Shown here: positions 3,040 to 53,876 of the stretch, in pieces
Numbering within the stretch: the first letter of the stretch is position 1
Layout of the letters: each line of letters opens with the position of its first letter
Assembly: GCA_026874595.1 (NCBI GenBank)
Contig: CM049319.1
Span: forward strand, 12,551,601 to 12,615,600
Length of the DNA: 64,000 nucleotides
Origin: Sipunculus nudus
Lineage: Eukaryota; Annelida; Sipuncula; Golfingiida; Sipunculidae
Direction of reading: 5' to 3'
Translations under genes and position numbers: made by a program
Notes under the pieces: generated by a model
Told to the model about the DNA's origin: nothing
Databases searched by the model: none
The model's input: only the letters and a program-made list of their open reading frames with translations

Positions 3040-3557
3040 ATGTGCGACCAGCACAGAGGTAAACCTTACCGCCTGGAGGCGCGCAGGTGTAAATGTCGTC
3101 AGTGTAGGCGGGAAACAGAAGGGTCGTCTGCTGTGATCGGACTCCTTGTGTCCTCAGCGGTCGGTGAGTGTACATAAAATCTATTATTATTGTGGTTATG
3201 ATAACATTTGTTATTATTTATTCAAATAATAATAATGATAATAATAATAATAATAATAATAGCCTGATAATAATAATAATTATAACAATAATAATGAATA
3301 ATGCTATTGTTATTATTATTATTATTATTGTTAGTAGTAGTAGTAGTAGAAGTAGTAGTAGTAGTAGTAGTGAAAGATAATAAATTAAAATTATTATTTC
3401 CATTTTTTCAGGTTTTATTGCTGCAGAGACAATACGCTCCAAACGACCCCATCCGTCGGTCTGTCCATGGCTGGCGGGGAAAACGAGCGAGTCACCGGAA
3501 ACTTCCGAACATTCCCGAGAGAGGAATCCATCGGGGGACAGTCTATCCAGCGTCTGA
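3040..3557 (+). CDS. Family 1 small Cys/Arg-rich protein, 89 aa, two exons (copy A)
   Basis: Exons are 3040-3163 and 3412-3557, with intron 3164-3411 (GTGAGT donor, TTTTTTCAG acceptor, phase 1). The start is the first ATG after the TATA box, with A at -3. Residues 1-28 are basic and carry C2 and a CxCxxC motif (C17, C19, C22). Residues 29-46 (SSAVIGLLVSSAVGFIAA) are hydrophobic, long enough for one membrane span. The tail 47-89 has KRPHP, C59, W61 and a Ser-rich acidic end. Diverged copy E matches at 75 of 89 residues with no indels. I do not recognise the family. A single-span membrane protein with basic N-terminus in the cytosol is inference; function unknown. Confidence 0.65.
3180..3375. 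repeat. Trinucleotide microsatellites in family 1 intron, copy A
   Basis: The intron holds runs of (AAT)n, (ATT)n and (GTA)n. They create long Asn, Ile, Leu, Val or Ser open frames on both strands that are not genes. The order and interruptions match unit D and differ from units B and C. Confidence 0.9.
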
Positions 3558-4098
3558 AGGATCAGAAACTAAACCCTTGAGAGAGGGGTTTTCTGACATC
3601 GCAATAGTCTCGCAGCTGGAGTGCGAGTTTCCAAATACGACATAAAGACGTCCTAATTTAAGAAGACGTGATCTCATCCGAGTTCAACGCGAGAAGAAAG
3701 TTCAGCTAGGTCACTTACGAACATCCTGCCGATGACGTATAGCCTGTAACCTGAGGGTTTCGGCTTTTTATATATAAACTGTTATTATATCCCCGAGCAT
3801 GCATATATATAGCAGGATTGACCGAAACACGTTGGACTGACAATGCCACGGGTTGTCTGAGCTCATTTGTGTTCCGGAAGGTCAGGGTGTACTTTAAAGG
3901 GGAAAAAAAATATTTTTTAATTTCGTGTTAAGATGACATATATCAATAGTTTGAATACACACAAAATATTTACAGGCCTAGCAGTATATATCTTTATACA
4001 CAGTACAAGCACTGTAACGTATACCCGTCACGTTACTGTTTTATTACAACTCATCATGATGATTATTCAATTGTATTTATTCATGAAGAGGAAATAAA
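3558..4098 (+). other. 3' UTR and poly(A) signal of family 1 copy A
   Basis: After the stop, about 540 bases lead to AATAAA at 4093-4098. The same context (TTCATGAAGA then AATAAA) is present in units B, C and D. Copy E has TTCATGAAGTTG then AATAAA on the minus strand at 52744-52749, so the 3' end is conserved between old paralogs. Confidence 0.6.
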
Positions 4099-4289
4099 AA
4101 CTTCAAGAATCATGTGTGATTCTGTGTTCAATTAACATTTTTATCATCACCTTTTCTAAATAACATCCAGTGTCTATAATATACAAAGCCGTATCCTCCA
4201 CGTGTTATCGTGTGGATGATGAAGACAAATTTAAACATTTTAACAAAGCGATAATTCCATATTAAAGGCACACGAATTTATAGTCACCT

Positions 4290-4715
4290 ATAGGCCATAT
4301 GAGTGGAATGTCATGAAAGTTTTTTTTATTTTCCTATATGAAAGGATCCTGTTTCTGTTTTGCCTCTTTCTCCCGTGTGTCTCATTATGTTCACGTTTCA
4401 ATTTTTATTTTTACATACATTTATCTGAAACAAACGTTATTTAAAAAAATGGCCCACTGGGGTTTGGGGGGGGGGGGGGGCTAGGAATAAAATCTAATGA
4501 ATTGATAAGATATTTTATGCGTTTATTAACGATCTTGTTGTGAAAGTTTCTCAAGATCCGACTCTTCTTGGTGACACGATATAGGATATACCAAAGGAAT
4601 TATCAGTGGGATTGCACCACCAGCTATATTTAGTATCTGGGTCATGTGGAACGACGCGTCACGGGAATCCCCTGTTACCATATTTACATACAACCTCAAG
4701 TGTTTACATGACACA
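4290..4715 (+). pseudogene. Decayed family 1 promoter copy and flank, unit A
   Basis: At about 4602-4712 the sequence repeats the family 1 promoter in degraded form: GCACCACCAGCTATATTTAG, then GTGGAACGACGCGTCACGG, AATCCCC, GTTACCATA and CTCAAGTG. The TATA box and gene body are missing. The 300 bases before it (4290-4600) reappear next to the other promoter fossil at 56062-56345. This marks an older family 1 copy whose body is gone. Confidence 0.6.
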
Positions 4716-5350: not shown

Positions 5351-5446
5351 AACATGTAGGAATTACTCTAGAATCTTGGGACTTCAGACCTAAATTTCCT
5401 TCAATTCTGAAAAGTTTAAAAATGTGATATGCCTTTTATCAGCCAT

Positions 5447-6084
5447 GCTGTGTTTCTCCTTTCATGTTTTGACGTTATTGAAAACTTGCATTTCTCGGGT
5501 TTATGTCATTCATGTGGGAAAATATTCAATAATCCAATAACACATGTGATTATCTCATGTGACCAGACTTCAAATGAGAGAGAGATATTATGGAATGAAA
5601 TAAATAATTCATTCAGTGTACATATAAGCTCTTATTTACATAATATAGACGATCTGACATTCATTTCTAAATTATTTAGTGCTGAAATTCCTCTTAAGAC
5701 AGAAGATGGGAAAAAAAGGTTTCAACAATATGTTTTAGATTTTCTGTACAGTGTTAGACATGTCATTGATGCGCTCTGGCCGCCAGCATTGGAATATCTG
5801 ATATTTGGGAAATCGTTTAGGATGAGGATGAGTTAAGACAATCACTGTGGTTATATGTCTATTTGGCAAAACATTGGTTTTGCGTGGGTTTGTATGCCAT
5901 GTTCATTAATGGATAAATATACGTTGTTATGTTAAAATTACGCACCAAGGAAACTTTTGATCTTTATTTTTCACCTAATTTACAGTGAATTGCACAGTTT
6001 GTATTTTTTTTTATGTAAACCTTTGTATAATGTGTTGATGCTCTTCAGACTTGAAGGAAATAAAGGTAATCAATCAATCAATCA
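5447..6084 (+). pseudogene. LINE1 3' end, unit B
   Basis: Same ORF2 C-terminus as at 1-602, here with a little more upstream coding sequence (FLLSCFDVIENLHFSG) and an intact frame to the stop at 5836. It ends in the AATAAAGG and (ATCA)n tail at about 6084. It is 5' truncated at the unit junction. Confidence 0.8.
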
Positions 6085-6298
6085 TGCGTCCTATCTATCT
6101 GCGTCCCACTGGAACGTAATCGTCTTTTCATCATTTCACCATGACAAACTATTTAATTTTAAATTTTTTTATTGAAACCAAATCAGATCAGAATATATAA
6201 TGAAAATATACGGCTGTCACTTGCACTGATATTCCTGTTTCCCGTTGAAAACCAGATAACTCTTAAAACCAACAGTTTTTGGCCAAAACAACAATTAA

Positions 6299-7712
6299 AG
6301 GCGGTTTCACACCGGATGCGTCCGAACGAATATGACACGAACGAATATTTCTGTCGTTCCGACTAAAATCCTGTCGCATCCGAAATTTCATTCACACCAA
6401 ATCCGACCGATATTTTTGGTTTACGACCGAGGAATTTTCGTCTCCGAAATTCGTATTGGACAGCTATATGAGAAATATATAATAATAATAAATAATAAAG
6501 TTTATCTCTGAGTGTACAGACTGTATAATTGAAATAATTGGGCCTTGCTAGGTACCAGCTATAGTCCTGAGTTCATAGGTTACATATATTTATTCCACTG
6601 ACTGGACTCAGATTCTCATTTCAACATAAAAATGATTATTTAAAAATAATTGTGATATTTAAAAATGATATCTAAAAATAATTGTGCAACCTGAAATTTC
6701 AACAGAACAGATTCCATTGCAACTTCTGCATTTCAAGTTAAATAAAATTTTTCATCACTAGTTTAGTTTGATTTATATTTGATTTTCAAATCTGCCAATA
6801 TGATTTAAAACAGTCTGCCCAAAGCTTTGAAACTTCTGTTTATATGCAAAACGTTTAACTAAAAATTATACTTTTGTAATAATAAAAATGACATTTGAAA
6901 AAAGTTTTTGTTTCATGATTGTTTTCCCTAAATTTAACGCGGAACATTTTATTTTCGGGGGAGGGGTTGGGTAAGGAACACCAAGTCCTGGATAATGTTG
7001 CTTATTTGTGTACATATTGCTAATATAGGGAGGGGGGCTAGGGGGATGATCAATGTAATCATCCCTCCCCCCTCCCCCTTCAGAGAATAACTGTAATATA
7101 TTGCAAATAATATATTAAGAATTAGAATTTACCATGAAATATTATATCTTAACCTGGTTTAAAAGCCTAAATGTTTTGTCCTCGATTGTATATTTAAATA
7201 ATTGGCCAAGCGGCGATTGAAATCCCCTTTGATTAAAATATAATTCCCCCCAAGAAATATACGTATTATATAAAAAAAAGTCTGATTTTAATGGAAAAAT
7301 CATTAGAGCTAAAAACAAGTTATAAATATCTGTTTCAATCAAATAAATTTGATTGAAATAAAAATTATCCCCCTTTTTATATTTATCTTTTATCATATAA
7401 TTTTAGAACAGTGGACAAGGAAACAACATTTCTTTGTTGTTTGGGTATTATATATCAAAAAGGTAACGTACAAATGAACAAGGCTGGTTATAAATGTTCC
7501 AGCTCTTTTGAGTTGAAGGTGAAAAGAAGCCATTCTTGTCCGATGCGAACGACAAAAAATAGAACATGTTCTATTTTTTTCGTTCGGATAGCGTCGTTCG
7601 GATTAGGTGTGTATGCACCAACATAAAATAAAGGATTTTATTTTTTCGTTCGTACAGCAAATTTTCGTTCGGACGTAAAATTCGTTCGGACGCATCCGGT
7701 GTGAAACCGCCT
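6299..7712. mobile_element. Non-autonomous TIR element with TAA duplication, unit B
   Basis: 1414 bp, same element and same insertion point as 817-2230. TAA flanks lie at 6296-6298 and 7713-7715. The right TIR is perfect here (copy A has point changes). Shared position means it was inserted once and then copied with the unit. Confidence 0.85.
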
Positions 7713-8242
7713 TAAACAGACAACAGTCGTCGGCGCGATATTTTTACAAAAAAAAAAAAAAAAAAAAAAAAACCACGTAGAGATTCAATTTTTGCATATG
7801 GGTAAGTTTACATGTAATCTAAAATAGTTTTTTTCTTTATTCCATATCTGTTTTAGTTTAGCGGTAATACACCATTGAAAAATACATTGTTTGTATCATA
7901 ATTGTTTTTAATTGAAAAAAAAAAGATTATAAACACACAATAAAACATGGCTAGAGATATTTGTATGTACTTCCATGTGATACTATTTTTCCACACGTGC
8001 TGTTTGCCAAATGTGATATATATCGCGTTAAAATAATATAAAATAAATTATTAAATAAATCTTCAAAGCAAAATCTGAGACAATGTTCATATATATCTCT
8101 CATCTAACAGAGAATATTCTAAGGATTACAAATATGTATATATCATTAGGGCTTAAATTCATTTTAATATGAATTCTAAAGCTAAATTAAACCAAGGTTG
8201 TTTGATAATCATAATACCTTTAGTTGGATTGCGCGTTGTTGT

Positions 8243-8423
8243 GCGCTGACACTCGTTGTTATGTACCTGCTTGGGGAACCTGGGAAGCCCGGACTGGTAT
8301 TGCCCCACGGGCTATATTTAGAAATTAATATCATGGAACGCCACGTCACGGACTTCCCCAGTGGGATTCCCTATCGTTACCACAAACACTCCAAGAGTAT
8401 ATAAGGTGCCTGATATACCTAAT
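8243..8423 (+). promoter_or_regulatory. Family 1 promoter, unit B
   Basis: TATATAA at 8398-8404, CCACGTCA at 8341-8348, GGACTTCCC at 8350-8358 and GGGATTCCC at 8363-8371. Spacing is the same as in unit A. Confidence 0.65.
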
Positions 8424-8527
8424 TTTCTACAACTTATTTCCAACCCACTGGAGAGACACCGCCCTTGTCGTCAACATCGTCCAGAGAACTTTACAATAAA
8501 TTTTTGAACAGAGCATATTAAAACAAA

Positions 8528-8712
8528 ATGTGCGACCAGCACAGAGGTAAACCTTACCGCCTGGAGGCGCGCAGGTGTACATGTCGTCAGTGTAGGCGGG
8601 AAACAGAAGGGTCGTCTGCTGTGATCGGACTCCTTGTGTCCTCAGCGGTCGGTGAGTGTACATAAAATCAATTATTATTGTGGTTATGATAACATTTGTT
8701 ATTTTTTATTCA

Positions 8713-8748
<36 letters not shown>

Positions 8749-9311
8749 TATTATTATTATTATTATTATTATTATAACAATAATAATGAATAATGCTATT
8801 ATTATTATTATTATTATTAGTAGTAGTAGTAGTAGTAGTAGTGAATGTTTGTAACAATAGTAGTAGTTGCAGTGGTAGTGGTAATATTTGTAATATTGAA
8901 TATAGGATGTAGCTGAATGGCATGATATAAAAAAAAAACAAAAAAAAAAAAACAAGTTTATATGATTTAAACGGTTGTACGTACGTACTAGACATCATGT
9001 AATACCTTGCGACATTGTTGGAAATTAGTATACACAACACTATATATAAACATGTGCACACTTTAACATTAATATACTAGAGCACTAATATATATTTCTG
9101 GGTTTAGAGCTACTTGACAAATCGTGAAAGATAATAAATTAAAATTATTATTTCCAATTTTTCAGGTTTTATTGCTACAGAGACAATACGCTCCAAACGA
9201 CCCCATCCGTCGGTCTGTCCATGGCTGGCGGGGAAAACGAGCGAGTCACCGGAAACTTCCGAACATTCCCGAGAGAGGAATCCATCGGGGGACAGTCTAT
9301 CCAGCGTCTGA
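8528..9311 (+). CDS. Family 1 small Cys/Arg-rich protein, 89 aa, two exons (copy B)
   Basis: Exons 8528-8651 and 9166-9311, intron 8652-9165 (514 bp). The protein differs from copy A at K18T and A46T only; CxCxxC, the hydrophobic stretch 29-46 and the stop are the same. The intron is about 266 bp longer than in A and D, through a block after the GTA repeats (about 8840-9125). Splice sites are GTGAGT and TTTTTCAG. Function unknown. Confidence 0.62.
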
Positions 9312-9850
9312 AGGATCAGAAACTGAACCCTTGAGAGAGGGGTTTTCTGACATCGCAATAGTCTCGCAGCTGGAGTGCGAGTTTCTAAATACGACATGTC
9401 ACGTCCTAAATTAAGAAGACGTGATCTCATCCGAGATCAACGCGAGAAGAACGTTCAGCTAGGTCACTTATGAACATCCTGCCGATGACGTATATCGCCT
9501 GTAACCTGAGGGTTTCGGCTTTTAATATAAAATGTTATTATATCCCCGAGCATGCATATATATAGCAGGATTGACCGAACACGTTGGACTGACAACGCCA
9601 CGGGTTGTCTGCGCCCATTTGTGTTCCGAGAGGTCAGGGTGTACTTTTAGGGGAGAAAAAAAATATTTTTAATTTCGTGTTAAGATGACATATATCAATA
9701 GTTGGAATACACACAAAATATTTACAGGCCTAGCTGTATATATCTTCATACATAGTACAAGCACTGTAACGTATACCCGTCACGTTACTGTTTTATTACA
9801 ACTCATCATGATGATTATTTAATTGTATTCATTCATGATGAGGAAATAAA
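9312..9850 (+). other. 3' UTR and poly(A) signal of family 1 copy B
   Basis: Homologous to the unit A 3' UTR. AATAAA lies at 9845-9850, in the same TTCATGATGAGG-type context. Confidence 0.55.
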
Positions 9851-10171
9851 AACTTCAAGAATCATGTGTGATTCTGTGTTCAATTTACATTTTCACCATC
9901 ACCTTTTCTAAATAACATCCAGTATCTATAATATACAAAGCTGTATCCTCCACTTGTTATCGTATGGATGATGAAGACGAATTTAAACATTTTAACAAAG
10001 CGATAATTTCATATTAAAGTCACACGAATTTAACCTATAGGTCATTAGTATGCTGTGTGAGCAGTCACTAGAGAACAAAATTGATCTTGCGGACTTAAGA
10101 CCTGTTTCAGATTGTAACTGAGCAAGAAAGGTTTCCTGGTGGAATCTTGATTTAAATGCATAAACCTCGTA

Positions 10172-11047
10172 ATGACCAAGGGGAGTCTCTTGATGAATAA
10201 TTGGCAAGAGATTGTTACAATTAAGCTTTGTTTTTGTATGGTGCACCAGCTGAGGAACAGGGCTGCATCATCTCGTGTACCTGTAGATGAAGAACACACT
10301 GTGATGCAAATTCAGTCTCAACCTCTTATCGATATGGCTGTAAGTACTGGAGGTAAAAAAGAAGATACTGCACGAGGTGATCTTGTCAAACAGTTAATAT
10401 CCCTTGATATGAAACTCACTGCGCTTAGCCAGAAACAGATGTCCTTTGAAGAACACGTCAACGAACGTTTGGACAGTCATCAGACTTATCTAAATGAGGT
10501 TCAGGGCCAGGTGGAGGAAGCATCCGACAAAATCAGACAGACAGATACGCAATTGTGTGAACAATTGAGACCATGCTGAAATTAGCTCAGTCTGTGAGCA
10601 GGGACTATAAGGGACTTCGCTAAACACAATACTCCATCCGCTCCTACTACAAGGAGCACGCCCTAAAACACGAGTTGTAATCCAGGTGCTGCACAGGCTC
10701 AGTGGTCTCAAAATTTCAGGCAAATGTCTCAAACTGTACCTACACCCCAGTATAAACAATTGCCGCGTGAGGGTACATATTTTAGAGCGACAAGTGTAAA
10801 TAATTGGAGGTCACAGATTTATTTAGGGCACTTACCACTTGACATTACAGAATGTCGGCTAAACAATCATCTTGCTGAGCGTAATGTGTCAGCCCATGAA
10901 ATTGTAATGTTACCTAAGAGGAACATGAGGGCGCTTGGTGCGCGTATAACACTTGATGTCGACAATCTCTACAGGATTGAGAGAGGGGATTTCTGGCCGG
11001 ACGGTGTCTATGCCAGGAAATGGCGGCCGTTGGGACAGAGAACGTGA
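10172..11047 (+). pseudogene. LINE1 ORF1 remnant
   Basis: 10172-10579 encodes a polar, heptad-like segment (from about QLISLDMKLTALSQKQMSF to VEEASDKIRQ), probably coiled coil. 10724-11047 encodes IYLGHLPLDITE, then ALGARITLDVDN, then WPDGVYARKW. This resembles the RRM-like and C-terminal region of LINE ORF1 proteins, which bind the element RNA. The two parts are separated by a stop and frameshift at about 10577-10723. Confidence 0.6.
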
Positions 11048-11122
11048 TGTATAAACTCTGTTCTGTTCAATAAGTGAAGTAAAGGATTTGCAGGATAATT
11101 GTTTACCTTAACTGTCTAAAAC

Positions 11123-11893
11123 ATGGTTAAAATAAGTAATTTAAACATTGGAAGTTATAACATCCGGGGGGTTATGTCTGGAACACCATATTTATCTCGT
11201 TTACTTGAAAGCTATGATCTGGATATTTGCTGTGTGATTGAACATTGGTTGTATCCTTCCCATTTAGATTATATCTCGACATTGCATGAGAATTACTCTG
11301 CTCACACAGTATCGGATAAGAAGTTGGACCCATATGACTCGTTTCGTAGAGGCAAAGGGGGTATAAGTATGTTATGGAAAAAGTCTCTGTCCACATGTAT
11401 CTGAATTATGGATTTACGCAATGACGACCGAATAATGGGGTTGAAGGTATCAACAAACCCTGGCTGCCACCTATACACGTTTGGTGTCTATATGCCAAGT
11501 TCTAATTATTCTTTGGCATACTTTAAGGAGTATATTGATATTTTACATGGCATAAATCTCGAATATAAAGAGTACGGTTATGTCCTGTTAATTGGTGACT
11601 TTAATTGTGAAACTAACGGTCCACGCTATCAATGTACTTTGTCAACAAGGGGCAGATTATTTAAGCAATTTCTGGAGGAAAATGACCTGCAGTCAACTTG
11701 TGTACAGAAGTATTGTCAGGGACCGTTATATACTTTTGACCCGTATGAAACTTGTAAAAATCGCTCGCTTATTGATCATGGATTAGTGTCTTGTGATACT
11801 AATATTATATTAAATTGTAAGATCGTAGATGATGATATACTAAACGTGTCGGATCATCTTCCCATTGTATTACAAATTGATGCCCACATTTAA
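11123..11893 (+). pseudogene. LINE1 ORF2 APE endonuclease domain with in-frame stop
   Basis: From ATG 11123 the frame encodes an AP-endonuclease-like domain that would nick target DNA. Visible motifs are SYNIRG, EHWLYP, LIGDFNCE, SLIDHGL and VSDHLPIV. One TGA at 11402-11404 interrupts it, and the frame ends at 11891-11893. Further linker (DWRKIKNP to KPGWKQLLKP) follows in another frame up to about 12239. Unit C has the same stop at 24162-24164. Confidence 0.75.
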
Positions 11894-12264
11894 TAGAGCA
11901 CATGCACAACAGCCTCTTTTCGTCACGTCTTAGACTGGAGGAAAATTAAAAATCCTGTAATTCATCGTCGCTACCTAGAAACCTTGGAAACAGCTCTCGC
12001 CTCTGTAGTCCCTCCTGAAACGATTAACTGAGATACTACAAAATTAAATGATTACTACGCTGAGATAAAACGAGTATTACTAGAAGCGGCGGCATCTGTT
12101 GTTCCTCAGAGGAAATTTAGAAGCTACATAAAACCAGGATGGAAGCAGTTGCTCAAGCCAACACATGATAAAATGAAGCAGTGTAGGAAAATATGGGTTA
12201 GTAAGGGAAACCAAGGGACTATGCTGAATGCACTGAACTGAAAAGAAAATTGAATCAATCTCAG

Positions 12265-13188
12265 ATGAAATCTCAAACAAAATGCAAATGTCAAAATGCA
12301 AACCAAAGTGCAGTTTGTAAGAACAGTAAATCTGCAACCATGGTTGACCCTTATCGTAGACGCTCAACTGGGACCATTGGAACCATCACTAAAACTAAGG
12401 TAACTGGCAATGACAACCACACGGAGTTTGTGAATGATGATTGGCCATCTCTGAATGAAACTCTAGCTACAAAGAAGGTCAACCAAAACATAGAAACTGG
12501 GTTAGGAAGCCAAGTATCCGACGCAACAAAACACAATGATGCAGTTAGTAATCCTTTAACGGACTCAGTTACCATTGACTTGAATGACAAAAGCGCTTAG
12601 AATCGTGTTCTGGTTGTTGGTGATTCACTTGTCAGAAATTCTTATGCAAGTTTAGCCAAATATCTTCAGGATAAACAGATATGCGTGTTAAGCACTAGGG
12701 GGCTAACGCTTGATGAGGCACTGTACAAGATACCGAAAGCTAGCCGAGATCTCTCTGTGAATGATACTCTAGTGATACAGGTTGGTACAAATAACGTTGA
12801 ATGTGATGACTGCTCAAGTTTCGTTAACAAATTCTGTAAACTGCTAGAACTAACAAGGAAAAGTAGCAAATGTCAAATTGTAACTCTTGCATTACCTAGG
12901 CGTCTAAATGACTCAAATCTTAACATGAAAAATCTAACCCTAAACCATGAGATACAACAGAAATGTAAACTTTATGCCGATGTCATTTTCAATGACTGTT
13001 CTCCACCACTGAGAGAGCGGTATTATCGCACAGATGGCGTCCATTTCAGCTACCATGGCGTGACTGTTATGACAGGGCGGGTTGCATCCAGCGTGAGATA
13101 CCATCTAAACCAAACAAATGACGACAGCTCGAAAGTATGGGAATCATACAGAAATTTTCACAAAGATCACTCCCCAAGATCGAGATAA
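12265..13188 (+). pseudogene. LINE2 ORF1: SGNH-hydrolase (esterase) protein with one in-frame TAG
   Basis: From the ATG at 12265 the frame is Lys/Asn/Thr-rich, then reaches TAG at 12598-12600 and continues unbroken to 13188. After the stop the SGNH blocks are clear: VVGDSLVRN (catalytic Ser), VIQVGTNN (block III) and TDGVHFSYHG (Asp-x-x-His). Esterase ORF1 proteins of CR1-like elements act with RNA in the ribonucleoprotein; their exact role is unsettled. The same stop is present in unit C (25358-25360), so it predates the duplication. The apparent loss of ORF1 could be a simple nonsense mutation. Confidence 0.75.
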
Positions 13189-16129
13189 TAAATACAAATG
13201 TCAGAAAATTTTCTCCCGAATCCCATGTTGACACGATGGCTCTCACTAATATTGACAAAATCGGTCAAATTGGTGAGAATCCAACTGATCCAATCAAACT
13301 ATTAAATGTTACTAATAACAAGCAGACCTGTTTTATACACCTTAATATTAAAAGTATCTTACCAAAATTTGATGAATTTCAAGATATTGCTTTAAGGTGT
13401 AACGCAAAAGTCATATCAGTAAATGAAACATGGTTGTGTGAAGATATAACCAATGATGAAATTAACATTCCTGGGTACCAAATCTTCAGGCGAGATCGAG
13501 ATCGCCACGGGGGGGGGGGGGGGGGGGGGGGTCGCCTTGTATGTTGATGATACTTTGAATCCGGTTTTATGTGATGAATTACAATCAGTCAATACTGAAG
13601 CTATCTTTGTTAAGGTAAAGTATGCTGAACGCAATATTATTGTTGCTTCAATATATAGACCACCATCTTCTGATACATGCTTATTAAGTAAAATCACTGA
13701 TCTTATTGAGGAATCGCTAAAATACCATGTACCAGTAGTCATTCTTGGAGATTTTAATATCGATGTAAGTAAAGCAGGAACTTTGACAAGTGTCTTTGAC
13801 CAGTGGCTATGCAATTTCCAACTTAAGCAGTTAGTGAAGTCTCCAACCAGAGAAACTGTAACCTCATCAACAGTGATAGATTTAGTCTTCTCGAACATTC
13901 CCGAGAGACATATAACTACGGATGTGTTACCAATCTCTTTGAGTGACCACTGTTTAGTTTACACAGTACTATCATTTAAAAATATTAATAGAAATGTCAT
14001 AACAATAAAATCTAGAAACTTTAGCAAATTTAATCTAGAGAATTACCGAAATGATATCGCCTCATCTGTTTTACTACAGAACGTATTCTATGAATCTAAT
14101 ATCGAAGTTGCATGAAACAGAAAACTGAGTTCCTAAATATCTGTAATAAACATGCGCCCATATGGTCTCGTAGGGTAAAACATAGAGATTACCCTTGGAT
14201 GACACCGCAAATCCGTGCATGATAAAGCTCCGAGACAGATTACACAGATGCGCTGTAAAACACAAATCTCACATTCTCTTCTTTAAGTATAGAAGAATGA
14301 GAAACATGGTAACTACGCTTATAAGATCGACGAAAACTGCTTATTTCAGACATAACATCGATAATAACTATAATAATATCAAAGGTATGTGGAGCGCTCT
14401 TAAAAAAGTATTACCTGGTTCCTCATCAGCTAAATCTGGAGATTGCGATATATCATGTGAAGAGTTTAATGAGTATTTCAGTACCATAGGTGATATATTA
14501 GCGGTAAATTTTAAGGCATCCGAAACCCGCCCAGTTCGGTCGTTGAATATTACAGAGTCCCGTTTCAAATTTTCTATATTACTATCGCAGGATATACAGA
14601 AAGATTTACTTGCACTTCCACCTAAACACACTCTGGATATAATCGATATGGACATCACATTACTCCAAATGGCTTCGCAGCTCATTAGTCCTATGTTATG
14701 TTATCTATTTAATCTATCACTATATAACGCCACGTACCCGCTTGACTTGAAAACAGCTCGAATTACTCCAGTATATAAAGGAAAAGGCGATAAAGCAAAT
14801 AAGAGTAATTACAGACCCATATCAATAATACCTCACGTTGCGAAACTATTTAAAAAAGCTGTACAAAGGCAACTAATCAGGTTTATCATAAATAGCAATA
14901 ATATTTCAGAAAGTCAGCACGCATATCTGCCTGGAAAATCTACTGTAACGGCTCTTAGTAAATTTTCAAATGACGTATATAAAACTATGGATCAGGGTAA
15001 AGTTACTGCTGCTTGTTTTTTCGACCTAACCAAAGGATTTGATACCATAAATCATAAAAGATTATTGGAAAAGTTGTTCGTTTTTGGTTTTGATAAGAAA
15101 ACAGTTGCTTGGTTTCAATCTTACCTCCATGATCGCCTACAGATCGTAAAATACAATAACAATCTATCCAATGCTGCTGTTGTTAATGTAGGTGTTCCTC
15201 AGGGTACGGTTCTCGGCCCAATTCTATTTTTGATATATATAAATGATCTTCCAAATGTGCTAAATACTGATGGTATTGTAATGTACGCTGATGATGTCAC
15301 TGTATATTGCCATGGTAAAAATCCTGTAGAAGCTGAGATTAAATTACAGCGAGTAGTAAATCAAGTGACCACCTGGTACGACGAAAACCTGCTTACTCTG
15401 AATTATAATAAATCTAATGTTATGCTACTTGGAAATCTTCATAGAATTGCTGATCACAAACTCAAGATATCAATATTAGATACAACATTACTTTGTTCTA
15501 ATAAGATTAATCTACTTGGCGTTATAATAGATGCTAATTTATCCTGGAAACCACATGTTCACTCTCTATCCAAAAAACTATCTCAAAAGATAGGAGTTCT
15601 TTACCGAATATCAAGCTATCTGTCTATGCAATCTCTTACTAAGGTTTATGCAACTATAATTCAGCCTCATATTGACTATGCCCTAAGCATTTGGGGTTGT
15701 TCATTATTGTCTACCAATGATACGGTACAGAAAATACAAAACAGAGCTGCCCGCATTATATCCAAAAACTATGACAGAAATGTTGATTCTATAACCATAG
15801 TAAATGAACTGGGTTGGTTGAATATACGTCAACGCTATATGTGTTCTGTTGCAGTACTTATGTATAAATGTGTTTGTTCAATAGCTCCTGGTTTACAAGA
15901 GAATAATTTTCACTTTGTCAATGAAGCTCACAATCATCTAACCCGAGCTGCTGTGAGCAATGATTTAGTCGTTCCTAAACCTAGAACAAACTATCTGAAA
16001 AAATCTTTACTATATATGGGGCCAAAAATATGGAATAGTTTATCAAATGAATCTAAGTCAGCCATAACTTGTGCATCTTTTAAGAGACGACTCAAATTGG
16101 AAATTTTAGCAACTGTATGTTCTATATGA
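13137..16129 (+). pseudogene. LINE2 ORF2: APE endonuclease and reverse transcriptase, two frameshifts
   Basis: The ATG at 13137 overlaps the ORF1 end by 52 bases. The endonuclease shows HLNIKSI, NETWL, IYRPPSS, VILGDFNID, VIDLVFSN and SDHCLV. A G-run (13509-13531, 23 G) shifts the frame inside it. A second shift lies near 14115-14200, at WMTPQIR. From there an unbroken frame to 16129 carries the RT: YRPISIIPHV, motif A FFDLTKGFD, motif B PQGTVLGPILFLIYINDLP, motif C YADD and LLGVIIDANLSW. RT catalytic residues are kept. It would nick target DNA and prime reverse transcription. Confidence 0.85.
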
Positions 16130-16604
16130 CACATGTTATATTTGCATAAATTTGCGTTTTATACATGTAGCATTCATTCTTCTATCATTTCATAGATCAT
16201 ACAATAACTGTAAATTAATTTCATACGTATTTAACTGAATCTAACAATGATCAGGTCCATAAATGCTAGAGATTATTGTAATATTATTGGTTCGTATGCC
16301 TCGCATATTTGCATGTATATATATACTGATCTAATGTGATATTTTAGTTTACTCTTTCTGTCTATAGATGTATATATTGATATACTTTCTTAACACTCTT
16401 AATATGCTTTTATGATTTGAGTCCATATGTTCATGTTTATATTTTTAGTCATGGTATTATTTTATGCATTGTATTGATAGTTTAGTCATTGTATGTTTTA
16501 TATGTACTGATACAGGGCACCAAGTAAGACCAGTTTCATTTAAACTGATTGGTTTTCCCTGTATAAACATAATGTAAATAAATGAATAAATAAAAAATAA
16601 ATAA

Positions 16605-17301
16605 GACTAGAGTTTTCTTCTTATGTTAATTACAAAAGGACCAAGGCTTACTTCAGAAAAGAAATTAGAGCGTTTCATGATAGGAGAGATAGGGAATGCT
16701 TTCAGGAGTTAGACCAGAAACTGATATTATTAAACTCTATTATTAAACTGCGCATGTGCGCAGTAAAACTGGATCATCTGTAGGGATGGCTTTAAAGTTT
16801 AAAAATGAATTTTTACATAAATCAAAAGATATATGTGATGCTTGGGCTGATTATTTTGATGTTTTATATACTCCGAAAACGAACAGTGATTTTGATCAAG
16901 GCTTTAAGACACATGTCGAAGGAGAATTTCTTAAACTACTTGAAAGGATAATGCTTAAAAGGTTAAAGCAGTATGTTCGTATTAATAATATCCAGTTTCC
17001 AGATCCTATGCAGGGAGCATATCAAAAGAAACGCAGTTCCCTGCATACGTCATTTAATCTTATTGAATGTGTTAGCCATTCGATCGAAAGAGGATCAAAG
17101 GTTTATACTTGCTTCCTCGATGCCACTAAGGCTTTTGACACTGTATGGCAGAATGGTGGTGTCCTCTCGCCTTGGCTTTACCTACTGTACAATAATGCTC
17201 TTTTGGTTCAACTTCGGCAATGTGGGTACGGAACAAATGTAGGAGAAACCTATGTGGGGTCACCTGCACAAGCGGATGACGTTGTCTTAATGTCATGGTA
17301 A
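16605..17301 (+). pseudogene. LINE1 ORF2 RT domain, first part (after LINE2)
   Basis: Continues LINE1 ORF2: linker SYVNYKRTKAYFRKEIRAF to a TAG at about 16780. Then 16756-17301 encodes WADYFDVLYTP, GAYQKKRSS, motif A FLDATKAFDTVW, a shortened motif B region (GGVLSPWLYLLYNNAL) and motif C QADDVVLMS, with Y changed to Q. About 60 residues between motifs A and B are missing, so this RT is internally deleted. Confidence 0.75.
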
Positions 17302-18588: not shown

Positions 18589-19051
18589 AAGACAATCACT
18601 GTGGTTATATGTCTATTTGGCAAAACATTGGTTTTGCGTGGGTTTGTATGCCATGTTCATTAATGGATAAATATACGTTGTTATGTTAAAATTACGCACC
18701 AAGGAAACTTTTGATCTTTATTTTTCACCTAATTTACAGTGAATTGCACAGTTTGTATTTTTTTTATGTAAACCTTTGTATAATGTGTTGATGCTCTTCA
18801 GACTTGAAGGAAATAAAGGTAATCAATCAATCAATCATGCGTCCTATCTATCTGCGTCCCACTGGAACGTAATCGTCTTTTCATCATTTCACCATGACAA
18901 ACTATTTAATTTTAAATTTTTTTATTGAAACCAAATCAGATCAGAATATATAATGAAAATATACGGCTGTCACTTGCACTGATATTCCTGTTTCCCGTTG
19001 AAAACCAGATAACTCTTAAAACCAACAGTTTTTGGCCAAAACAACAATTAA

Positions 19052-21287: not shown

Positions 21288-21480
21288 ATGTGCGACCAGC
21301 ACAGAGGTAAACCTTACCGCCTGGAGGCGCGCAGGTGTACATGTCGTCAGTGTAGGCGGGAAACAGAAGGGTCGTCTGCTGTGATCGGACTCCTTGTGTC
21401 CTCAGCGGTCGGTGAGTGTACATAAAATCAATTATTATTGTGGTTATGATAACATTTGTTATTTTTTATTCAAATAATAA

Positions 21481-21511
<31 letters not shown>

Positions 21512-22071
21512 AATTATTATTATTATTATTATTATAACAATAATAATGAATAATGCTATTATTATTATTATTATTATTAGTAGTAGTAGTAGTAGTAGTA
21601 GTGAATGTTTGTAACAATAGTAGTAGTTGCAGTGGTAGTGGTAATATTTGTAATATTAAATATAGGATGTAGCTGAATGGCATGATATAAAAAAAAAACA
21701 AAAAAAAAAAAACAAGTTTATATGATTTAAACGGTTGTACGTACGTACTAGACATCATGTAATACCTTGCGACATTGTTGGAAATTAGTATACACAACAC
21801 TATATATAAACATGTGCACACTTTAACATTAATATACTAGAGCACTAATATATATTTCTGGGTTTAGAGCTACTTGACAAATCGTGAAAGATAATAAATT
21901 AAAATTATTATTTCCAATTTTTCAGGTTTTATTGCGACAGAGACAATACGCTCCAAACGACCCCATCCGTCGGTCTGTCCATGGCTGGCGGGGAAAACGA
22001 GCGAGTCACCGGAAACTTCCGAACATTCCCGAGAGAGGAATCCATCGGGGGACAGTCTATCCAGCGTCTGA
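21288..22071 (+). CDS. Family 1 small Cys/Arg-rich protein, 89 aa, two exons (copy C)
   Basis: Exons 21288-21411 and 21926-22071, intron 21412-21925 (514 bp, as in B). The protein is identical to copy B (T18, T46), with one silent change at codon 45. All features of copy A are present. Function unknown. Confidence 0.62.
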
Positions 22072-32618: not shown

Positions 32619-32802
32619 ATGTGCGACCAGCACAGAGGTAAACCTTACCGCCTGGAGGCGCGCAGGTGTAAATGTCGTCAGTGTAGGCGGGAAACAGAAG
32701 GGTCGTCTGCTGTGATCGGACTCCTTGTGTCCTCAGCGGTCGGTGAGTGTACATAAATCAATTATTATTGTGGTTATGATGACATTTGTTATTTTTTATT
32801 CA

Positions 32803-32842: not shown

Positions 32843-33129
32843 GCCTGATAATAATAATAATTATAACAATAATAATGAATAATGCTATTGTTATTATTAT
32901 TATTATTATTGTTAGTAGTAGTAGTAGTAGTAGTAGGAGTAGTGAATGATAATAAATTAAAATTATTATTTCCATTTTTTCAGGTTTTATTGCTGCAGAG
33001 ACAATACGCTCCAAACGACCCCATCCGTCGGTCTGTCCATGGCTGGCGGGGAAAACGAGCGAGTCACCGGAAACTTCCAAACATTCCCGAGAGAGGAATC
33101 CATCGGGGGACAGTCTATCCAGCGTCTGA
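32619..33129 (+). CDS. Family 1 small Cys/Arg-rich protein, 89 aa, two exons (copy D)
   Basis: Exons 32619-32742 and 32984-33129, intron 32743-32983 (241 bp). The protein equals copy A except E74K. Intron repeats and UTR also match A, not B or C. Splice sites and stop are conserved. Function unknown. Confidence 0.63.
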
Positions 33130-33854: not shown

Positions 33855-34285
33855 ACCTATATGCCATATGAGTGGAATGTCATGAAAGTTTTTTTTATTT
33901 TCCTATAAGAGAGGATCATGTTTCTGTTTTGCCTCTTTCTCCCGTGTGTCTCATTATGTTCACGTTTCAATTTTTATTTTTACATCCATTTATCTGAAAC
34001 AAACTTTATTAAAAAAATGGCCCACTGGGGGCTGGGGGGGGGGGGGGGCTAGGAATAAAATCTAATGAATTGATAAGATATTTTATGCGTTTATTAACGA
34101 TCATGTGGTGAAAGTTTCTCAAGATCCGACTCTTCTTGGTGACACGATATAGGATATACCAAAGGAATTATCAGTGGGATTGCACCACCAGCTATATTTA
34201 GTATCTGGGTCATTTGGAACGACGCGTCACGGGAATCCCCTGTTACCATATTTACATACAACCTCAAGTGTTTACATGACACATA
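33855..34285 (+). pseudogene. Decayed family 1 promoter copy and flank, unit D
   Basis: Same promoter fossil as 4290-4715, with the promoter part at about 34170-34282. It lacks TATA box and gene body. Confidence 0.6.
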
Positions 34286-37740: not shown

Positions 37741-40145
37741 TCAAGAATTATGCAACTTTCTGATGTAAACTTAGCCTGGGAAATGTGGCGCTATGAATTT
37801 CTGAGAATTTCTAATAACAACGCGCCTTTTATTCGACGTCGCACCAAAGCTCGCGAAAATAAATGGTTCAATAATGATTTACTTAATGAGATTCACTTGC
37901 GTGATTATGCACATCGGAACGCATTAAGAACAAATCACAGTAATGACTGGTCTGCGTACCGACATCAGCGAAATTATGTTACAAATCTTATCAGATCCAC
38001 TCGTAGCCAGTATTATGCCACGCTGATACAAAAAAATGGCTCCAACCCTGGTTGTGTGTGGAAAGCTTTAAAACACATACTGCCTTCGAAAACCTCCTCG
38101 AATAAAGAAAGCGGAAAGATTGACCCTGATAAATTTAACCATTACTTTACTTCTGTTGGAAAAAATATTAACGATAAATTTCCGAAAACAATATTTACCT
38201 GCGATCATATTGGTAACCCGAATTTGGAATCTTTTGATTTTAATTCAGTTTCGAGTCAATTTGTTTTATCACAGTTGTTGAAAGTAAACTCCAGTATGAA
38301 AGAAGATATACTGGGAATGTCAGGATTTTTCCTTAAGATAGCCGCACCTTATATTTCAGCTCCATTAGCCCACATATTTAACATCTCACTTCAAACCGGC
38401 GAGTTTCCAGCAGATTGGAAGACCGCTAGGATCACTCCTATATACAAAGGATCTGGATGTAAGGATGATCCAAATAACTACCGACCGATCTCAGTTACAG
38501 GCCATGTGCCAAAAATAATAGAACAATTCGTTAAATCGCGCCTCATTACGTTTTTTGAAAGTAATAATCTGTTTTCGGATAAACAATTCGCTTATCTTCC
38601 TAATCGTTCAACTTCATTTGCCTAGCACAGCATAATTGACGAATGCTTAATCAGTCTTAATAACAATAATGTTACCGCCGCATGTTTCCTCGATGTAAAA
38701 AAAGGTTTTGATAGCCTTGATCATACTGTCTTACTTACAAAAATGAGCGACTATGGCATAAAAGGTATACCGCTTATGTGGTTCGAAAACTACCTGTCTA
38801 ATCGTAAGCAAGTGGTTTATTCTAATGGATTGCTTTCAGAACCACGCACCTTGGACATAGGTACCCCACAGGGCACTGTCCTTGGACCTATATTTTTCCT
38901 TTTTTATCTAAATGATCTTCCAATGTTCCTCAGTGAGAAATGCGTCATTTATGCTGATGATATTTCAATTTATTCTTCAGCGAATTCAGCCGCTAAAGCT
39001 ATAGAGTCATTACAAGTAAATCTCGAAATTGCACTTAAATGGTTTAGAGAGAATCGACTCAGTATAAATCCCCAAAAATCATCATTCATATTATTTGGCC
39101 CCAAGTCTAAAACCAATGGAAATCAACTGAACATTTCCATGGATAACATTACAGTGATGCCGGTTGAACACACACAGCTTTTAGGTGTTATCATCGACGC
39201 TGGTCTTACATGGAAAAAACATATTCAACTGGTGTGCGACAAAATAGTATCAAAACTAGGTCTCCTTTTCAGATTAAGTAAAACCTTAGATGTCTTTAGC
39301 TTAAACACACTTTACAATGCCTTAATTCAGAGTCACATTGATTATTGTATATCTGTCTGGGGTAATTCCTCCAAAACGTATTTATTACAACTCCAAAAAC
39401 TTCAAAATAGAGCTGCTAGAATCGTTACTAAAACTTATGATACCAATATATCCTCTACATCATTGATTGCAACATTGGGTTGGATGAATGTTAAACAGAG
39501 ATACCAATATTTTGTTTCTTTAATGGTCTTTAAATGTTTGTCTGGTAATGTCCCTCCCTCTCTTACGCATACGTTCAACCGTGTTAATAGTGCATATAAT
39601 ACTCGTTTTTCTCAGGGCTTCAATTTATCATTACCTAAACCAAACAGAGAATCCTTCAAAGCAAGTCTTGCATATGCTGGTCCCATCCACTGGAATTCTT
39701 TACCTGTAAGTGTCAAATCTGCAACCAGTCTCTGCCAGTTTAAATCATTGTACAAGCAATTTATGCCATATAATTTTTCATAGCTTGTTCACAGGTGCCT
39801 TTTCGTCTTTGTATTCATTACCTATATTACTGTGTCATTATGTAATATATTTATTGTGAAATCACGATCTTACATGTTTTAATTTTTAGTCAGGCCTCTT
39901 TTTTAAATTTATTTACTCAATATTCGTGTATATCATTTAAGAATTTTTTTTTCTATGATCATTTTAAACCATGTATGTATAACTGTTTTTTATGTATGCA
40001 TGTATTTTAGTTTCTGTTCTTTCATATTTGCTTTTTTATCTGTGTACTTATCTATATCATCTAGACCAGGACCCTATTGAAAAACAGCTTTTGCTGAATA
40101 GGCTATCCTGGTTAAAAATGTATTATAAATAAATAAAAAATAAAT
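37740..40145 (+). mobile_element. LINE3, 5'-truncated CR1-group retrotransposon
   Basis: Starts inside the ORF2 linker at about 37740 and ends after a short 3' UTR in an (AAATAA)n tail. Its RT is related to LINE2 but clearly different. The truncated 5' end is the usual product of incomplete reverse transcription. Confidence 0.85.
37750..39783 (+). pseudogene. LINE3 ORF2 reverse transcriptase, one in-frame stop
   Basis: A single frame of about 677 codons is broken only by TAG at 38623-38625 (after PNRSTSFA). The linker shows RTKARENKWFNNDL. RT motifs are YRPISVTGHVPK, motif A FLDVKKGFDSLDH, motif B PQGTVLGPIFFLFYLNDLP, motif C YADD, then LLGVIIDAGLTWKKH. The end resembles that of LINE2 (WNSLPVSVKSA..CQFK). 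The endonuclease is missing through 5' truncation. Confidence 0.85.
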
Positions 40146-44989: not shown

Positions 44990-46721
44990 GCGAAATGTTT
45001 GTCTTTGAACTGCTGCATGCAAATGCATTCACACTGAATGTGAAAACTTACGAGATACTGTGGTCACTGAGTCTGTTTTTAGAGTTTGGAGATACAGAAC
45101 CCTGAAGCTGATCAAACTCATACTCTCGGATGCGTATAATAAGTGCGGTGAAATGCATACCTTTCTCCTGGGACATACACATGTTGTCAAACTGGATGTG
45201 ATAACATTAGAGATATTGTTGAGGTTATTTACGTAGAATTAGAGAATATGTAACCAATTAATATTTTATTAATGTTCAGATAAAGAACTCTTAAGTTGAT
45301 CAAAATTAAGGAAATGTATTTAGCTCAAGTAACTAAAGTTTTACAATAAACTTTTCATGTAGGATAGAGAGATAATTTACTTCAGCCCGACGCAGACATA
45401 AATGATAACCTGGGTCTTATATGGACAGAGCGATAGCATATAACTTCCGACCACTGACACGAGTGCTAATATGAACGTCATCCATCTTAGGCACGAGTGA
45501 TTATTTGTTTCGATCAACACAAACAAGAATGATATCATATCATCCGTATATAATAAAGGCATGAGTTAAGACATAACCTCCAACCGACATAGATAATATT
45601 TTGTATGAATTTGTATATGTATGTATCAATTACAGCCTTTGTGGACCCCTTAACGCAAAGTTAAATTTATCATTATTATCCCCATAGCAGTTTGGTCAGG
45701 AGAAAACCCTTTATATATGTTATTTTCTTGTACGCTTTATTGAAAACTTGCTGTTTTCTGCTGTTGGTATGCTGACTAATGTTTGTATTCAATATGGGAA
45801 GTCCACTCTTAGAAAAAAGGGTTCCAACTAGAACCCAAAAGGGTTCTTCAGAATGGACTGAGTGAGAAACCTTTTAAGGTTCCAGCTAAAACCTTCAAGC
45901 GGGGAACCTCCCTAAGGTTCTTTTATGGAACCTATAAGGTTTCATAGAAAAACTCTTTAGAGGTTCTGAGAAGAACCCTCTAAGGTTCTTCACTGTGGAC
46001 TGAGTGGGGAACCTTTTAGGTTCTTGGTGGAACCAATGTGTAGGGTTCTTCACAGAACCTTCAATGAATTTTTATTTAAGAAAACAGTCTAGGATGTCCT
46101 ATTATATGTTTACGATAAATTAATTACGTCATATGTCCATACATATTTGATAGAGTACAGAAGAGGAACAGCTGTCTTCGGTCTAAATTATGGTAACCAT
46201 AGGCAACCCAGACTGCCACAGGCGAGGCAAACATCCACATTGATTTGTGATCTTGTGCTGTGCTTAATTTCGCATGGATTTGTGGAATTGATCAACTCAA
46301 TTAATTCTCAGAGTGGATGATGTTTGCATTTGTAGAACTATTTAAACGCACTGGCGCCAGGTGAAAGAAAGCATTGCATACATATAGCTTGTGCTATAGA
46401 AACGTGGGACTCCCGTCCGAACAAAACCATGCATGTGGCTCTTAAATAACTGACCGCCATATAACTAACTGACCGCCATATAAATGCAGTATACTAGACG
46501 TACATGAGAATAGGTGAAAACCCTAAGGGTACTAGATTAAACAGACCATGCAGCGTTGCGTTAAATTTTTCAGCCTATAGATGGAGGTCAAGGAGGTCTT
46601 CCTGTGAGGCCACACATTTTCGCAACTGATTTATAAAAAGGGTGCCCTTCATGGCACACACGTTATACTTACTTTGCATTGTAACTTAGGATATGTAGTG
46701 ACACTCCGATAAACACATGCC

Positions 46722-46773
<52 letters not shown>

Positions 46774-46877
46774 CAAGTATACAGTTTTATGACTGAGTGT
46801 GTCTGCGAAGCAGTTTGCAACCTCGCTTGAACTGAAGGTTTATATCCTCTTTGTATAGAATTTTCCGTTGCAGCATC
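44990..46877 (+). promoter_or_regulatory. Family 2 upstream region, copy 2
   Basis: Aligns with 58610-60435 upstream of copy 3 over most of its length (for example the TCAATTACAGCCTTTGTGGA block at 45630 against 58910). The core before the ATG is 46340-46877. It contains a CACTA-like insertion (45804-46090) and an expanded (AT)n at about 46723-46771. Confidence 0.5.
45804..46090. mobile_element. GGTTCT-rich palindromic repeat, CACTA-like
   Basis: Begins CACTCTTAGAAAAAAGGGTT, contains many alternating GGTTCTT and AAGAACC blocks, and fades near TTTTTATTTAAGAAAAC. Copy 3 (59090-59105) joins GGGAAGTC directly to a GAACAGCCGTC-type sequence, so about 350 bp are extra here. A start with CACT and a complementary end suggest a short EnSpm/CACTA-type element. 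Confidence 0.5.
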
Positions 46878-48421
46878 ATGGACTCAAAGATTTTCAGCAT
46901 TCTCCTTGTGGTTGGTGAGCATCATTATTATAAGTCTTAGCTTGTTAAAATTACAAGGTTATGTAATAACGGTCACCTACTGAATTTATTCAACAGTATA
47001 TAAGTGGTCGTAGATGCACACCCATGCAAAATGTTAACTATTGCAATGATTAGTATATACCTAATATTTTACTTCTGTTAATGTTAAAATATTAATGTAA
47101 TTATATAAATGTAATATAAAAACAGAATTCATATTTTTTTGTTATCTGGTCCTACTAAAACATACAACTTACTACGCCTCTGGCCTCTGTGGTCCTGTCT
47201 CGCAAGGCGTGTTTTCTTTTCTTGAAATTTTTGTAACGAATAATAGTGTCTGTCATTTACATAATTATCCCCATAAATTCTGAGAAACGTAATAAAATTT
47301 CACAAAGTGGTCTTCAAAGGGCCATTTGTCAGAAGCTCTGCCAGCTAACCTGATACATGTCAACTCGGAACACCAGTGAACTCAGTTCATATCAAAACCC
47401 ACTCCAAGCATAGCGGCGGAAGCCCTTCGGGATTCTCCAAACACAAGAATAGGTAATATGCTAGTAATTATGGTAAGAGAAAACCTCTGATTTGATATAT
47501 GGTACACTCTGTCTCAGTTTCCGTTGGCGCCTTCCTTGTGTCGTCTGCTGAAGGTGGAGGGGTTGCGCCAGCTCCGACAACAGCGCCACCGGCAACAACT
47601 GCGGCACCTCCACAAACAACAGCCGGGAGCAGCATGACACCTACCCCAGCAGCTGTGCAGACGACAGCAGAGGACAGTGGCGTGTAAGTGCTATTAAATT
47701 TACTAATTTTAATTGATAAGACTTCTAATTACTAATTATACCTGAGGCATGCAGGAGGAATCATTTCTCCATCGCTGTTGGTTGGTTTGTTGGTTATTTG
47801 ATATGTTGGTTTGTCAGTTTATTTGTAAGCGAGTTCACTCAAACAGTTTTGAAAGATTATAACAAATTAATAATCTATAAAATTTTAAAGCTGTGTATAG
47901 ACTATATCAGATATTGATCTGGACCAGTTCAAATCCGGATCGTGGTTTAGCCCGGACTGAAACCCGATTCTGATTTAGTCTAAAACAATTACTGATTTTT
48001 CCAGACCAAATCCAGATAAGGATACTACAGTGAAAATGTCATTAGATTCCGTTCATGACTGCGTGAGTTGTGAACAAATACACATATAGACACACAAACG
48101 AACGGTCATGAACGCATATGTTCCTGGCGTAGGAAAATAATGCCATCTGCCCATACTTTTCACTCAATAGTTTCCCGTGAGTTAAGGCAATTTGTAAAAT
48201 TAAATGTTAAAAGTCAAAATAAGAGTCATTTTAACAAATGAAAAGATTCGATGAATAAGATTATTGGCGCAGGTACCTGACATACAGATTTAATTAATGA
48301 AATAAAAGGAGTACTTTTGCCTTCCAATATACACAACATAGTCTTTGTTTAAATTGAAATATTTTAAACTTTATGAATGAAAGTTTTTCTGGTTTGTATG
48401 TAAAATAGAGATATTTGTTAA

Positions 48422-52740: not shown

Positions 52741-52743
52741 ATA

Positions 52744-53266
52744 TTTATTTCAACTTCATGAATCTAAATATATATATATATATTTACTTTCACTTCATGT
52801 GTATTTAAATATACAAAATCATAAGTAAATGTATATGTATGTAGCCTATTTTCAATATAAAGGCTGAATTATAAAGACATATATCTTCCATATATTTGAA
52901 AAGAAATTAAACAGGCAATGCTTGTCTTTCTTTTCATCAACCTTTGATCCATGAAATGTTTCACGTTTCTCTTCCTTCTACAAACACCACTCAAGTCTTA
53001 GCGAATTTTCCGATGCAATCAGTCCAGTGGGCTTACATTTCGTTTGGTCCTCCTGTACAGGTGACAAATCACGTGACACTGACGTTCATGACGCCAAGAC
53101 AATCCATATAAAACCAACTTTCATCGAAACTCTCAGGTTTCAGAATTCATCAGTGGCAGCGTGTTTGAAACTGACCTGAGAAGTTCTTCTCGCATAGTTC
53201 TCTGATGAGAGCACGGGCCTGATTATTGAGCTACAAGAAGATTCTCTTCTAGGGTACACTCACGCT
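52744..53266 (-). other. 3' UTR and poly(A) signal of family 1 copy E
   Basis: On the minus strand the 3' UTR keeps patches of the unit A UTR (GCGAGAAGAA, CCTGAGAGTTTCG). It ends with AATAAA at 52749-52744, after TTCATGAAGTTG. Confidence 0.55.
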
Positions 53267-53876
53267 TCAAGCACTAGACAAACTGTCTCCGGATTGATCC
53301 CTCTTTCGGGAATGTACGGTCGTTTCCGGTGACTCGCACGTTTTACCAACCAGCCATGGACAGACAGACGGATGGGGTCGCTTGCCACGCATTGTCTCTG
53401 CAGCCATAAAACCTGACAAAATTAAAAATAATTATTTTAAGCTTTTATTTTCTGCTATTAAGCACCTCCAAACCCTGAACTGCACGTATGGGTGTGCGTG
53501 TATATATGGCTGTGTAAAATTTACTCAATGTATGTTGATTTAAAAAATTGTTGCACGTGTTGTATGAGGTCCAATGAGACAATAGTACATTTTAAATCCA
53601 TTTTGCTCCATTTAAACTTTTTTTTTCGATCTAATGCTCATTAATTCATCACATTCTATTTTCAATAATTGAAACATGTCTGCTACTACCACTGCTACTA
53701 ATAAATGATGATGATGATAATGATAATAATAATAATAGTTAATTTTACTCACCGACCGCGGTGGACACCAGGAGTCCGATCACAGCAGACGACCCTTCGG
53801 TTTCCCGCCTACACTGACGACATCTGCACCTGCGCGCCTCCAATCGGTAAGGTTTACCTCTGTGGTTATCGCACAT
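53267..53876 (-). CDS. Family 1 small Cys/Arg-rich protein, 89 aa, two exons (diverged copy E)
   Basis: Minus strand: exon 1 is 53876-53753, exon 2 is 53412-53267, with a 340-bp intron between (GTGAGT donor, CAG acceptor, phase 1, same position as A). Against copy A, 75 of 89 residues match with no indels. Replacements are Q4N, K18R, S39T, I44M, I49M, S51G, A63V, S67C, S73T, E74V, E78K, N80D, P81Q and V89A. About 17 other codons differ silently. CxCxxC, the hydrophobic stretch, HPSVCPWL and the stop are kept. This pattern indicates purifying selection, strongest in the N-terminal half. Function unknown. Confidence 0.72.

What the first reader, a model, noticed from the sequence alone, without database searches (positions are those of the whole stretch)
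3040..53876. Unrecognised 89-aa protein family, five copies, frame conserved between old paralogs
Copies A-D (3040, 8528, 21288, 32619) and inverted copy E (53876, minus) share one intron position and phase, length and stop. A and E differ at 14 residues but about 17 other codons silently, with no indels. Introns and flanks have changed much more. The protein has a basic CxCxxC N-terminus, an 18-residue hydrophobic segment and a Ser-rich tail. It matches no family I know. A TATA promoter, clean splice sites and a conserved AATAAA complete the gene model.
Basis: partly seen in the sequence, partly recalled or inferred. Interest (0 to 1): 0.8.

Follow-up and report, generated by a model that had tools for sequence, protein, structure and literature searches.

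The report
Local tandem cluster of small genes
This animal genome carries one cluster of copies of a small two-exon gene that shows the marks of a protein-coding gene kept by selection, next to copies that have decayed, but what the 89-residue protein does is not known.

Summary
Five copies (A-D plus, E minus) each encode 89 residues in two exons with one phase-1 GT-AG intron. In the 1.43-Gb genome that holds the window, the family was found at one place only, an 85-kb cluster: six readable copies, two broken ones and promoter remnants. It is not a dispersed repeat.

The coding claim rests mainly on A against E: omega 0.26 (2dlnL 13.8, p 0.0002), differences by codon position 9/6/21, no indels, exons differing at 36 of 271 sites against 154 of 368 in the 3'UTR. 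Broken copies are only a weak control. Against it: among recent copies changes run 4 replacement to 1 silent.

No match worth the name came from Pfam, NCBIfam, PDB, phage, viral or prokaryote collections; no eukaryote collection was on hand, so 'unrecognised family' is untested where it matters. A promoter found only in the cluster carries TGACGTGG, GGRNTTCCC sites and TATA. Best reading: a lineage-restricted small membrane protein, perhaps induced by stress or immunity, in birth-and-death evolution. The gene is well supported; topology, induction and function are inferred.

The parts
3040..3163 (+). copy A exon 1
3412..3557 (+). copy A exon 2 with stop
8528..8651 (+). copy B exon 1
9166..9311 (+). 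copy B exon 2 with stop
21288..21411 (+). copy C exon 1
21926..22071 (+). copy C exon 2 with stop
32619..32742 (+). copy D exon 1
32984..33129 (+). copy D exon 2 with stop
53753..53876 (-). copy E exon 1
53267..53412 (-). copy E exon 2 with stop
2853..2916 (+). copy A promoter core: CCACGTCACGG (its reverse complement reads TGACGTGG), GGACTTCCC, GGGATTCCC, TATATAA at 2910-2916
54000..54063 (-). copy E promoter core, same order of elements
55868..56340 (+). remnant F: promoter (about 55868-56064) next to sequence like the 3' flank of A (56063-56340); no coding part, no TATATAA; outer limits approximate
4607..4675 (+). remnant G: weak promoter-like remnant after copy A, 74% over 70 columns
34175..34243 (+). 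the same remnant after copy D
4093..4098 (+). AATAAA of copy A (equivalents start at 9845, 22605, 33662, and 52749 on the minus strand)

Best explanation
Well supported: a protein-coding, single-locus gene family of 89-aa proteins, multiplied by tandem and inverted duplication, with births (B/C) and losses (Y, X, remnants F and G), whose readable copies keep frame, splice sites, promoter core and polyA signal. Inferred: the product is a small single-pass membrane protein without an N-terminal signal, its basic CxCxxC end in the cytoplasm (9 K/R, 4 D/E in residues 1-28) and its Ser/Thr-rich tail outside or in the lumen. It would be made on demand from a TATA promoter read by a bZIP factor (CREB/ATF6/XBP1 type, TGACGTGG) together with a Rel/NF-kB-type factor (repeated GGRNTTCCC); copy number would raise dose; it would act as a membrane adaptor or modulator in a stress or immune response. 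My odds: coding gene under selection 0.9 (0.93 before weakened the broken-copy control); restricted to the lineage 0.75; membrane-inserted 0.55; stress- or immunity-induced 0.45.
For: Same two-exon model in five copies in the window and a sixth at C14:12549165. A-E omega 0.263, 2dlnL 13.8, p 0.0002; of six frames the named one has the lowest pN/pS, 0.26. Codon positions 9/6/21 (p 0.005). Exon v 3'UTR divergence: A-E 36/271 v 154/368, p 1e-15; A-B 2/271 v 27/479, p 0.0005; E v broken X 33/254 v 57/376, p 0.49, i.e. no exon saving there. Promoter core, at most 1 mismatch: 8 places, 8 of 8 in the cluster, reversed control 0. UPRE consensus TGACGTGG/A: passages of PMC8301375.
Against: Recent readable copies show 4 replacement and 1 silent change. 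The broken copy Y is a poor control: 6 of its 12 exon differences from A lie beside its G run; without them A-Y is 6/249, below its 3'UTR (31/478, p 0.02), and not different from A-B (p 0.16) (with all 12 gave p 0.33 and 0.012). E-X positions 11/7/15 lean to the third but do not differ from even (p 0.23). Gene conversion may explain part of A-B: B's intron and 3'UTR resemble Y (3.1%, 2.7%), its promoter and exons resemble A (1.1%, 0.7%), and the A-B upstream flank differs as little as the exons (20/2740, p 1.0). One antisense frame has pN/pS 0.34, with three stops. The hydrophobic stretch is marginal. Promoter motifs were chosen after seeing the sequence, so the probabilities are optimistic; the full GGRNNNYYCC is met once in A, B, D and not in E, F. 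No transcript was seen.
Confidence: 0.5

Rival explanations
1. The gene is real and coding, but the protein is soluble: a zinc-binding or nucleic-acid-binding small protein built on CxCxxC with HPxxC, whose hydrophobic stretch packs inside a fold.
For: CxCxxC and HPSVC are invariant in the five window copies (one search aligned A, B, D, E; C has B's protein); the hydrophobic stretch is marginal for a membrane span.
Against: No zinc-domain family over its cut-off; a usual second CxxC is missing.
Confidence: 0.3
2. A relaxed or dying local gene family: the old copies were under constraint, the recent burst is mostly redundant copies on the way to pseudogenes.
For: Two of eight copies found are broken, plus remnants F and G; recent changes 4 replacement to 1 silent, including R15C and K18T beside the cysteines.
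Against: A-B exons differ less than the nearby noncoding DNA (2/271 v 69/1265, p 0.0002), though gene conversion could do this too. The comparison with broken Y does not help (p 0.16 without the G run); I raised this rival from 0.25 for that reason.
Confidence: 0.28
3. A mobile element or its passenger, or a non-coding RNA gene with a chance reading frame.
For: Reverse-transcriptase and endonuclease ORFs lie between and around the copies.
Against: No copy found outside one cluster in 1.43 Gb (lower bound by the tool's statement); the only other match scored E 0.59. Frame and codon-position tests for A-E.
Confidence: 0.04

Closest known systems
Taxonomically restricted (orphan) gene families in tandem arrays with birth-and-death evolution
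   Same: One locus, young tandem copies, broken copies beside readable ones, no family match over a cut-off in the libraries reached.
   Different: No difference found; restriction to the lineage was not tested, for want of eukaryote collections.
LITAF-domain small membrane proteins (PF10601, recalled)
   Same: Cysteine pair, hydrophobic stretch, then an HxxxCP motif in a short protein (resemblance recalled).
   Different: Not listed by Pfam at E up to 10 for A or E (its filters drop most matches above about 0.1); the second CxxC is absent.
GFA family (PF04828)
   Same: Weak match over residues 12-44 of copy E, which hold CxCxxCR.
   Different: E 0.075, 13.6 bits against a cut-off of 24.3; no match for A.

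Membership tests
Protein-coding gene under purifying selection | omega below 1 with third-position bias in the named frame | tested here: met
   for A-D against E; not met among the recent copies
Dispersed repeat or transposable element | copies at many loci | tested here: not met
   one cluster only
Lineage-restricted gene family | no homologue outside the clade | not testable with these tools
   no eukaryote genome but its own; protein A had no relative in viral, phage (best E 0.9) and prokaryote collections
LITAF (PF10601) | profile match, and CxxC plus HxCPxC | tested here: not met
   not listed (E up to 10, filters as stated there); second CxxC absent (motif recalled)
GFA (PF04828) | score over the curated cut-off | tested here: not met
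   13.6 bits against 24.3, copy E only
Single-pass membrane protein | a hydrophobic span long and apolar enough to insert | tested here: inconclusive
   Kyte-Doolittle 1.95 and 1.70; summed mid-membrane cost about 0 for 16 residues, +1.7 to +1.9 for 18
UPR/CREB-type inducible promoter | TGACGTGG/A element, conserved among copies | tested here: met
   presence of the site only, binding and response not tested
NF-kB-type inducible promoter | GGRNNNYYCC sites conserved among copies | tested here: inconclusive
   (A, B, D, E, F): full consensus 1 in A, B, D and 0 in E, F; GGRNTTCCC, chosen afterwards, 2-3 in each

The most novel reading that the evidence does not exclude
A protein family of a kind not yet described: a stress- or immunity-switched micro membrane protein with a basic CxCxxC head, under its own private promoter module, amplified at one locus of one animal lineage.
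Probability: 0.25. Interest if true: 0.6.

Novelty: new member of a known kind. Interest (0 to 1): 0.35.

Why it matters
Genes this small are easily missed by annotation. Here old, young and broken copies lie in one cluster, so selection on a short orphan protein can be followed at several depths, and the promoter module found nowhere else in the genome makes a guess about the inducer that a reporter assay could settle.

Tried and rejected
A weak protein match 17-19 kb upstream of copy Y (HTGQPFRPQPRRCHCR, E 0.002) is a GC-rich palindromic repeat seen in both orientations. Protein A in viral contigs (41 pattern matches, 0 relatives), prokaryote genomes (446 pattern matches, 0 relatives) and phages (one match, E 0.9) led nowhere, as did PDB (A only, best E 1.1), Rfam (0 at gathering) and tRNA (0). 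A C-terminal PDZ ligand (SSV) was dropped because E ends SSA. Taxon: PF14830 and PF14862 found nothing and their controls rang nowhere, so they say nothing; PF10690 did not complete. Neighbouring ORFs: of nine sent to Pfam 2 had a family over its cut-off, reverse transcriptase and endonuclease. Papers: four peptide fragments are in 0 papers of the held library; some searches were seen as listings only; of PMC8301375 I saw passages. Structure prediction was not run: the tool takes proteins read letter for letter from DNA, and this one is spliced. Broken copy Y as a neutral control was used first and then found weak.

Full report
What is there. Copies A-D on the plus strand and E on the minus strand each hold a 124-nt first exon and a 146-nt second exon with the stop, joined over one phase-1 GT-AG intron, giving 89 residues. 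B and C encode the same protein. A-D differ from one another at 1 to 4 codons. A and E differ at 14 residues and 16 further silent codons, with no indel.

Where it is. The genome that holds the window (1.43 Gb, 153 contigs) was searched in six frames. Protein A gave 17 matches, 17 of 17 in one stretch of contig 14, 12541929-12626906. Protein E at E up to 10 gave 18: 17 there and one on contig 5 at E 0.59. The 299-bp promoter plus 5'UTR gave 10, 10 of 10 on contig 14 between 12537889 and 12627102, one of them only 35 bp long. The 18-base promoter core, one mismatch allowed, gave 8, 8 of 8 in the cluster, with 0 for the reversed control. Such counts are lower bounds by the tool's own statement. 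Outside the window lie a readable sixth copy Z (C14:12549165, R15C), a broken copy Y (C14:12541929; stop at codon 39, frame of exon 2 broken by a G run) and a broken copy X (C14:12626906, minus; frame broken, stops, donor changed from GTGAGT to GTCTGT, the GT itself kept). Inside, remnant F keeps promoter and 3' flank but no coding part, and G is a weak promoter remnant after A and after D.

Is it coding? A against E: omega 0.263, likelihood ratio 13.8, p 0.0002; B and D against E give 0.28. These share the recent ancestry of A-D and so are one test, not three. By halves: exon 1 0.18 (p 0.007), exon 2 0.31 (p 0.008). Differences by codon position are 9, 6, 21 (p 0.005). Exons differ at 36 of 271 sites (one is an intron base, by my mask), the 3'UTR at 154 of 368 with 163 gap columns; p 1e-15. 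A-B shows the same: 2/271 v 27/479, p 0.0005; A-D (p 0.10) and A-Z (p 0.43) are too young to tell.

Broken copies as a control. E against broken X shows no exon saving (33/254 v 57/376, p 0.49), with positions 11/7/15, not different from even (p 0.23). A against broken Y looked the same at first (12/271 v 31/478, p 0.33; positions 4/4/4). On checking, 6 of those 12 differences lie beside Y's G run; without them A-Y is 6/249, lower than its 3'UTR (p 0.02) and not different from A-B (p 0.16). So Y probably lost its frame only recently and is a poor control, and the broken copies as a whole support the case only weakly.

Against. The recent readable copies carry 4 replacement changes to 1 silent; this does not differ significantly from the A-E ratio (p 0.18), but gives no support for constraint. 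A-B divergence is uneven along the unit: 5 of about 2200 sites in the first 2.2 kb, then 1.5% to 9.5% per 200-bp bin, the two bins that hold most of the exons being lowest at 1.5%. Exchange between copies has probably happened: B's exons and promoter resemble A while its intron and 3'UTR resemble Y. The upstream flank as a whole is as alike as the exons (20/2740, p 1.0).

How it may work. Residues 1-28 hold 9 K/R and 4 D/E; the hydrophobic stretch starts at residue 29-31 and is marginal for a membrane span. The positive-inside rule (recalled) would put the CxCxxC end in the cytoplasm. The promoter has, in the same order in A, B, D, Z and E (C equals B): GGGAAGCCC, TGACGTGG in reverse, two GGRNTTCCC sites and TATA. 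TGACGTGG/A is the UPRE consensus (PMC8301375, passages). The probabilities are for motifs chosen after the fact and are leads only. Broken X has changes in both GGRNTTCCC sites; F has no TATATAA but keeps the other sites.

Known or new. Pfam gave nothing for A and a sub-threshold GFA match for E; NCBIfam one sub-threshold match for A; PDB, with A only, two matches at E 1.1 and 1.4. No eukaryote proteome was on hand, so 'no known family' is limited to these. As a kind, a tandem lineage-restricted small gene family is ordinary in animal genomes (general knowledge).

Context. The basic unit is about 5.5 kb (Z to A 5475, A to B 5488). B and C sit in a larger unit of period 12,760, 99.65% identical, that holds reverse-transcriptase and endonuclease ORFs. 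Read depth would be needed to rule out unpurged haplotypes.

Noticed in passing
5446-19052 and 18204-31809: Direct duplication of period 12,760, 99.65% identical, holding copies B and C and reverse-transcriptase ORFs; recent duplication or unpurged haplotype.
   Followed up: partly
12601-13188: ORF with a weak GDSL-like match (PF13472 E 0.0004, 21.3 bits, under the cut-off of 32.9), upstream of a reverse-transcriptase ORF at 14186-16129.
   Followed up: partly
37720-39783: Two successive ORFs split by one stop; the first has a sub-threshold reverse-transcriptase match, the second was not sent to Pfam.
   Followed up: partly
57642-58456: Tandem array of about 165-181 bp units.
   Followed up: no
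46657-47134 and 63538-64000: A repeat pair of about 0.48 kb, 93.7% identical.
   Followed up: no
L009 near 974-1018 and 2602-2649: GC-rich GGCCGCC palindromic repeat in both orientations that mimics part of the protein by chance.
   Followed up: yes
L015:238-453 and 973-1488, minus: ORFs that look to me like exons of an Ig-type surface protein (impression only; the longer was sent to Pfam without a match; the shorter was not sent).
   Followed up: partly
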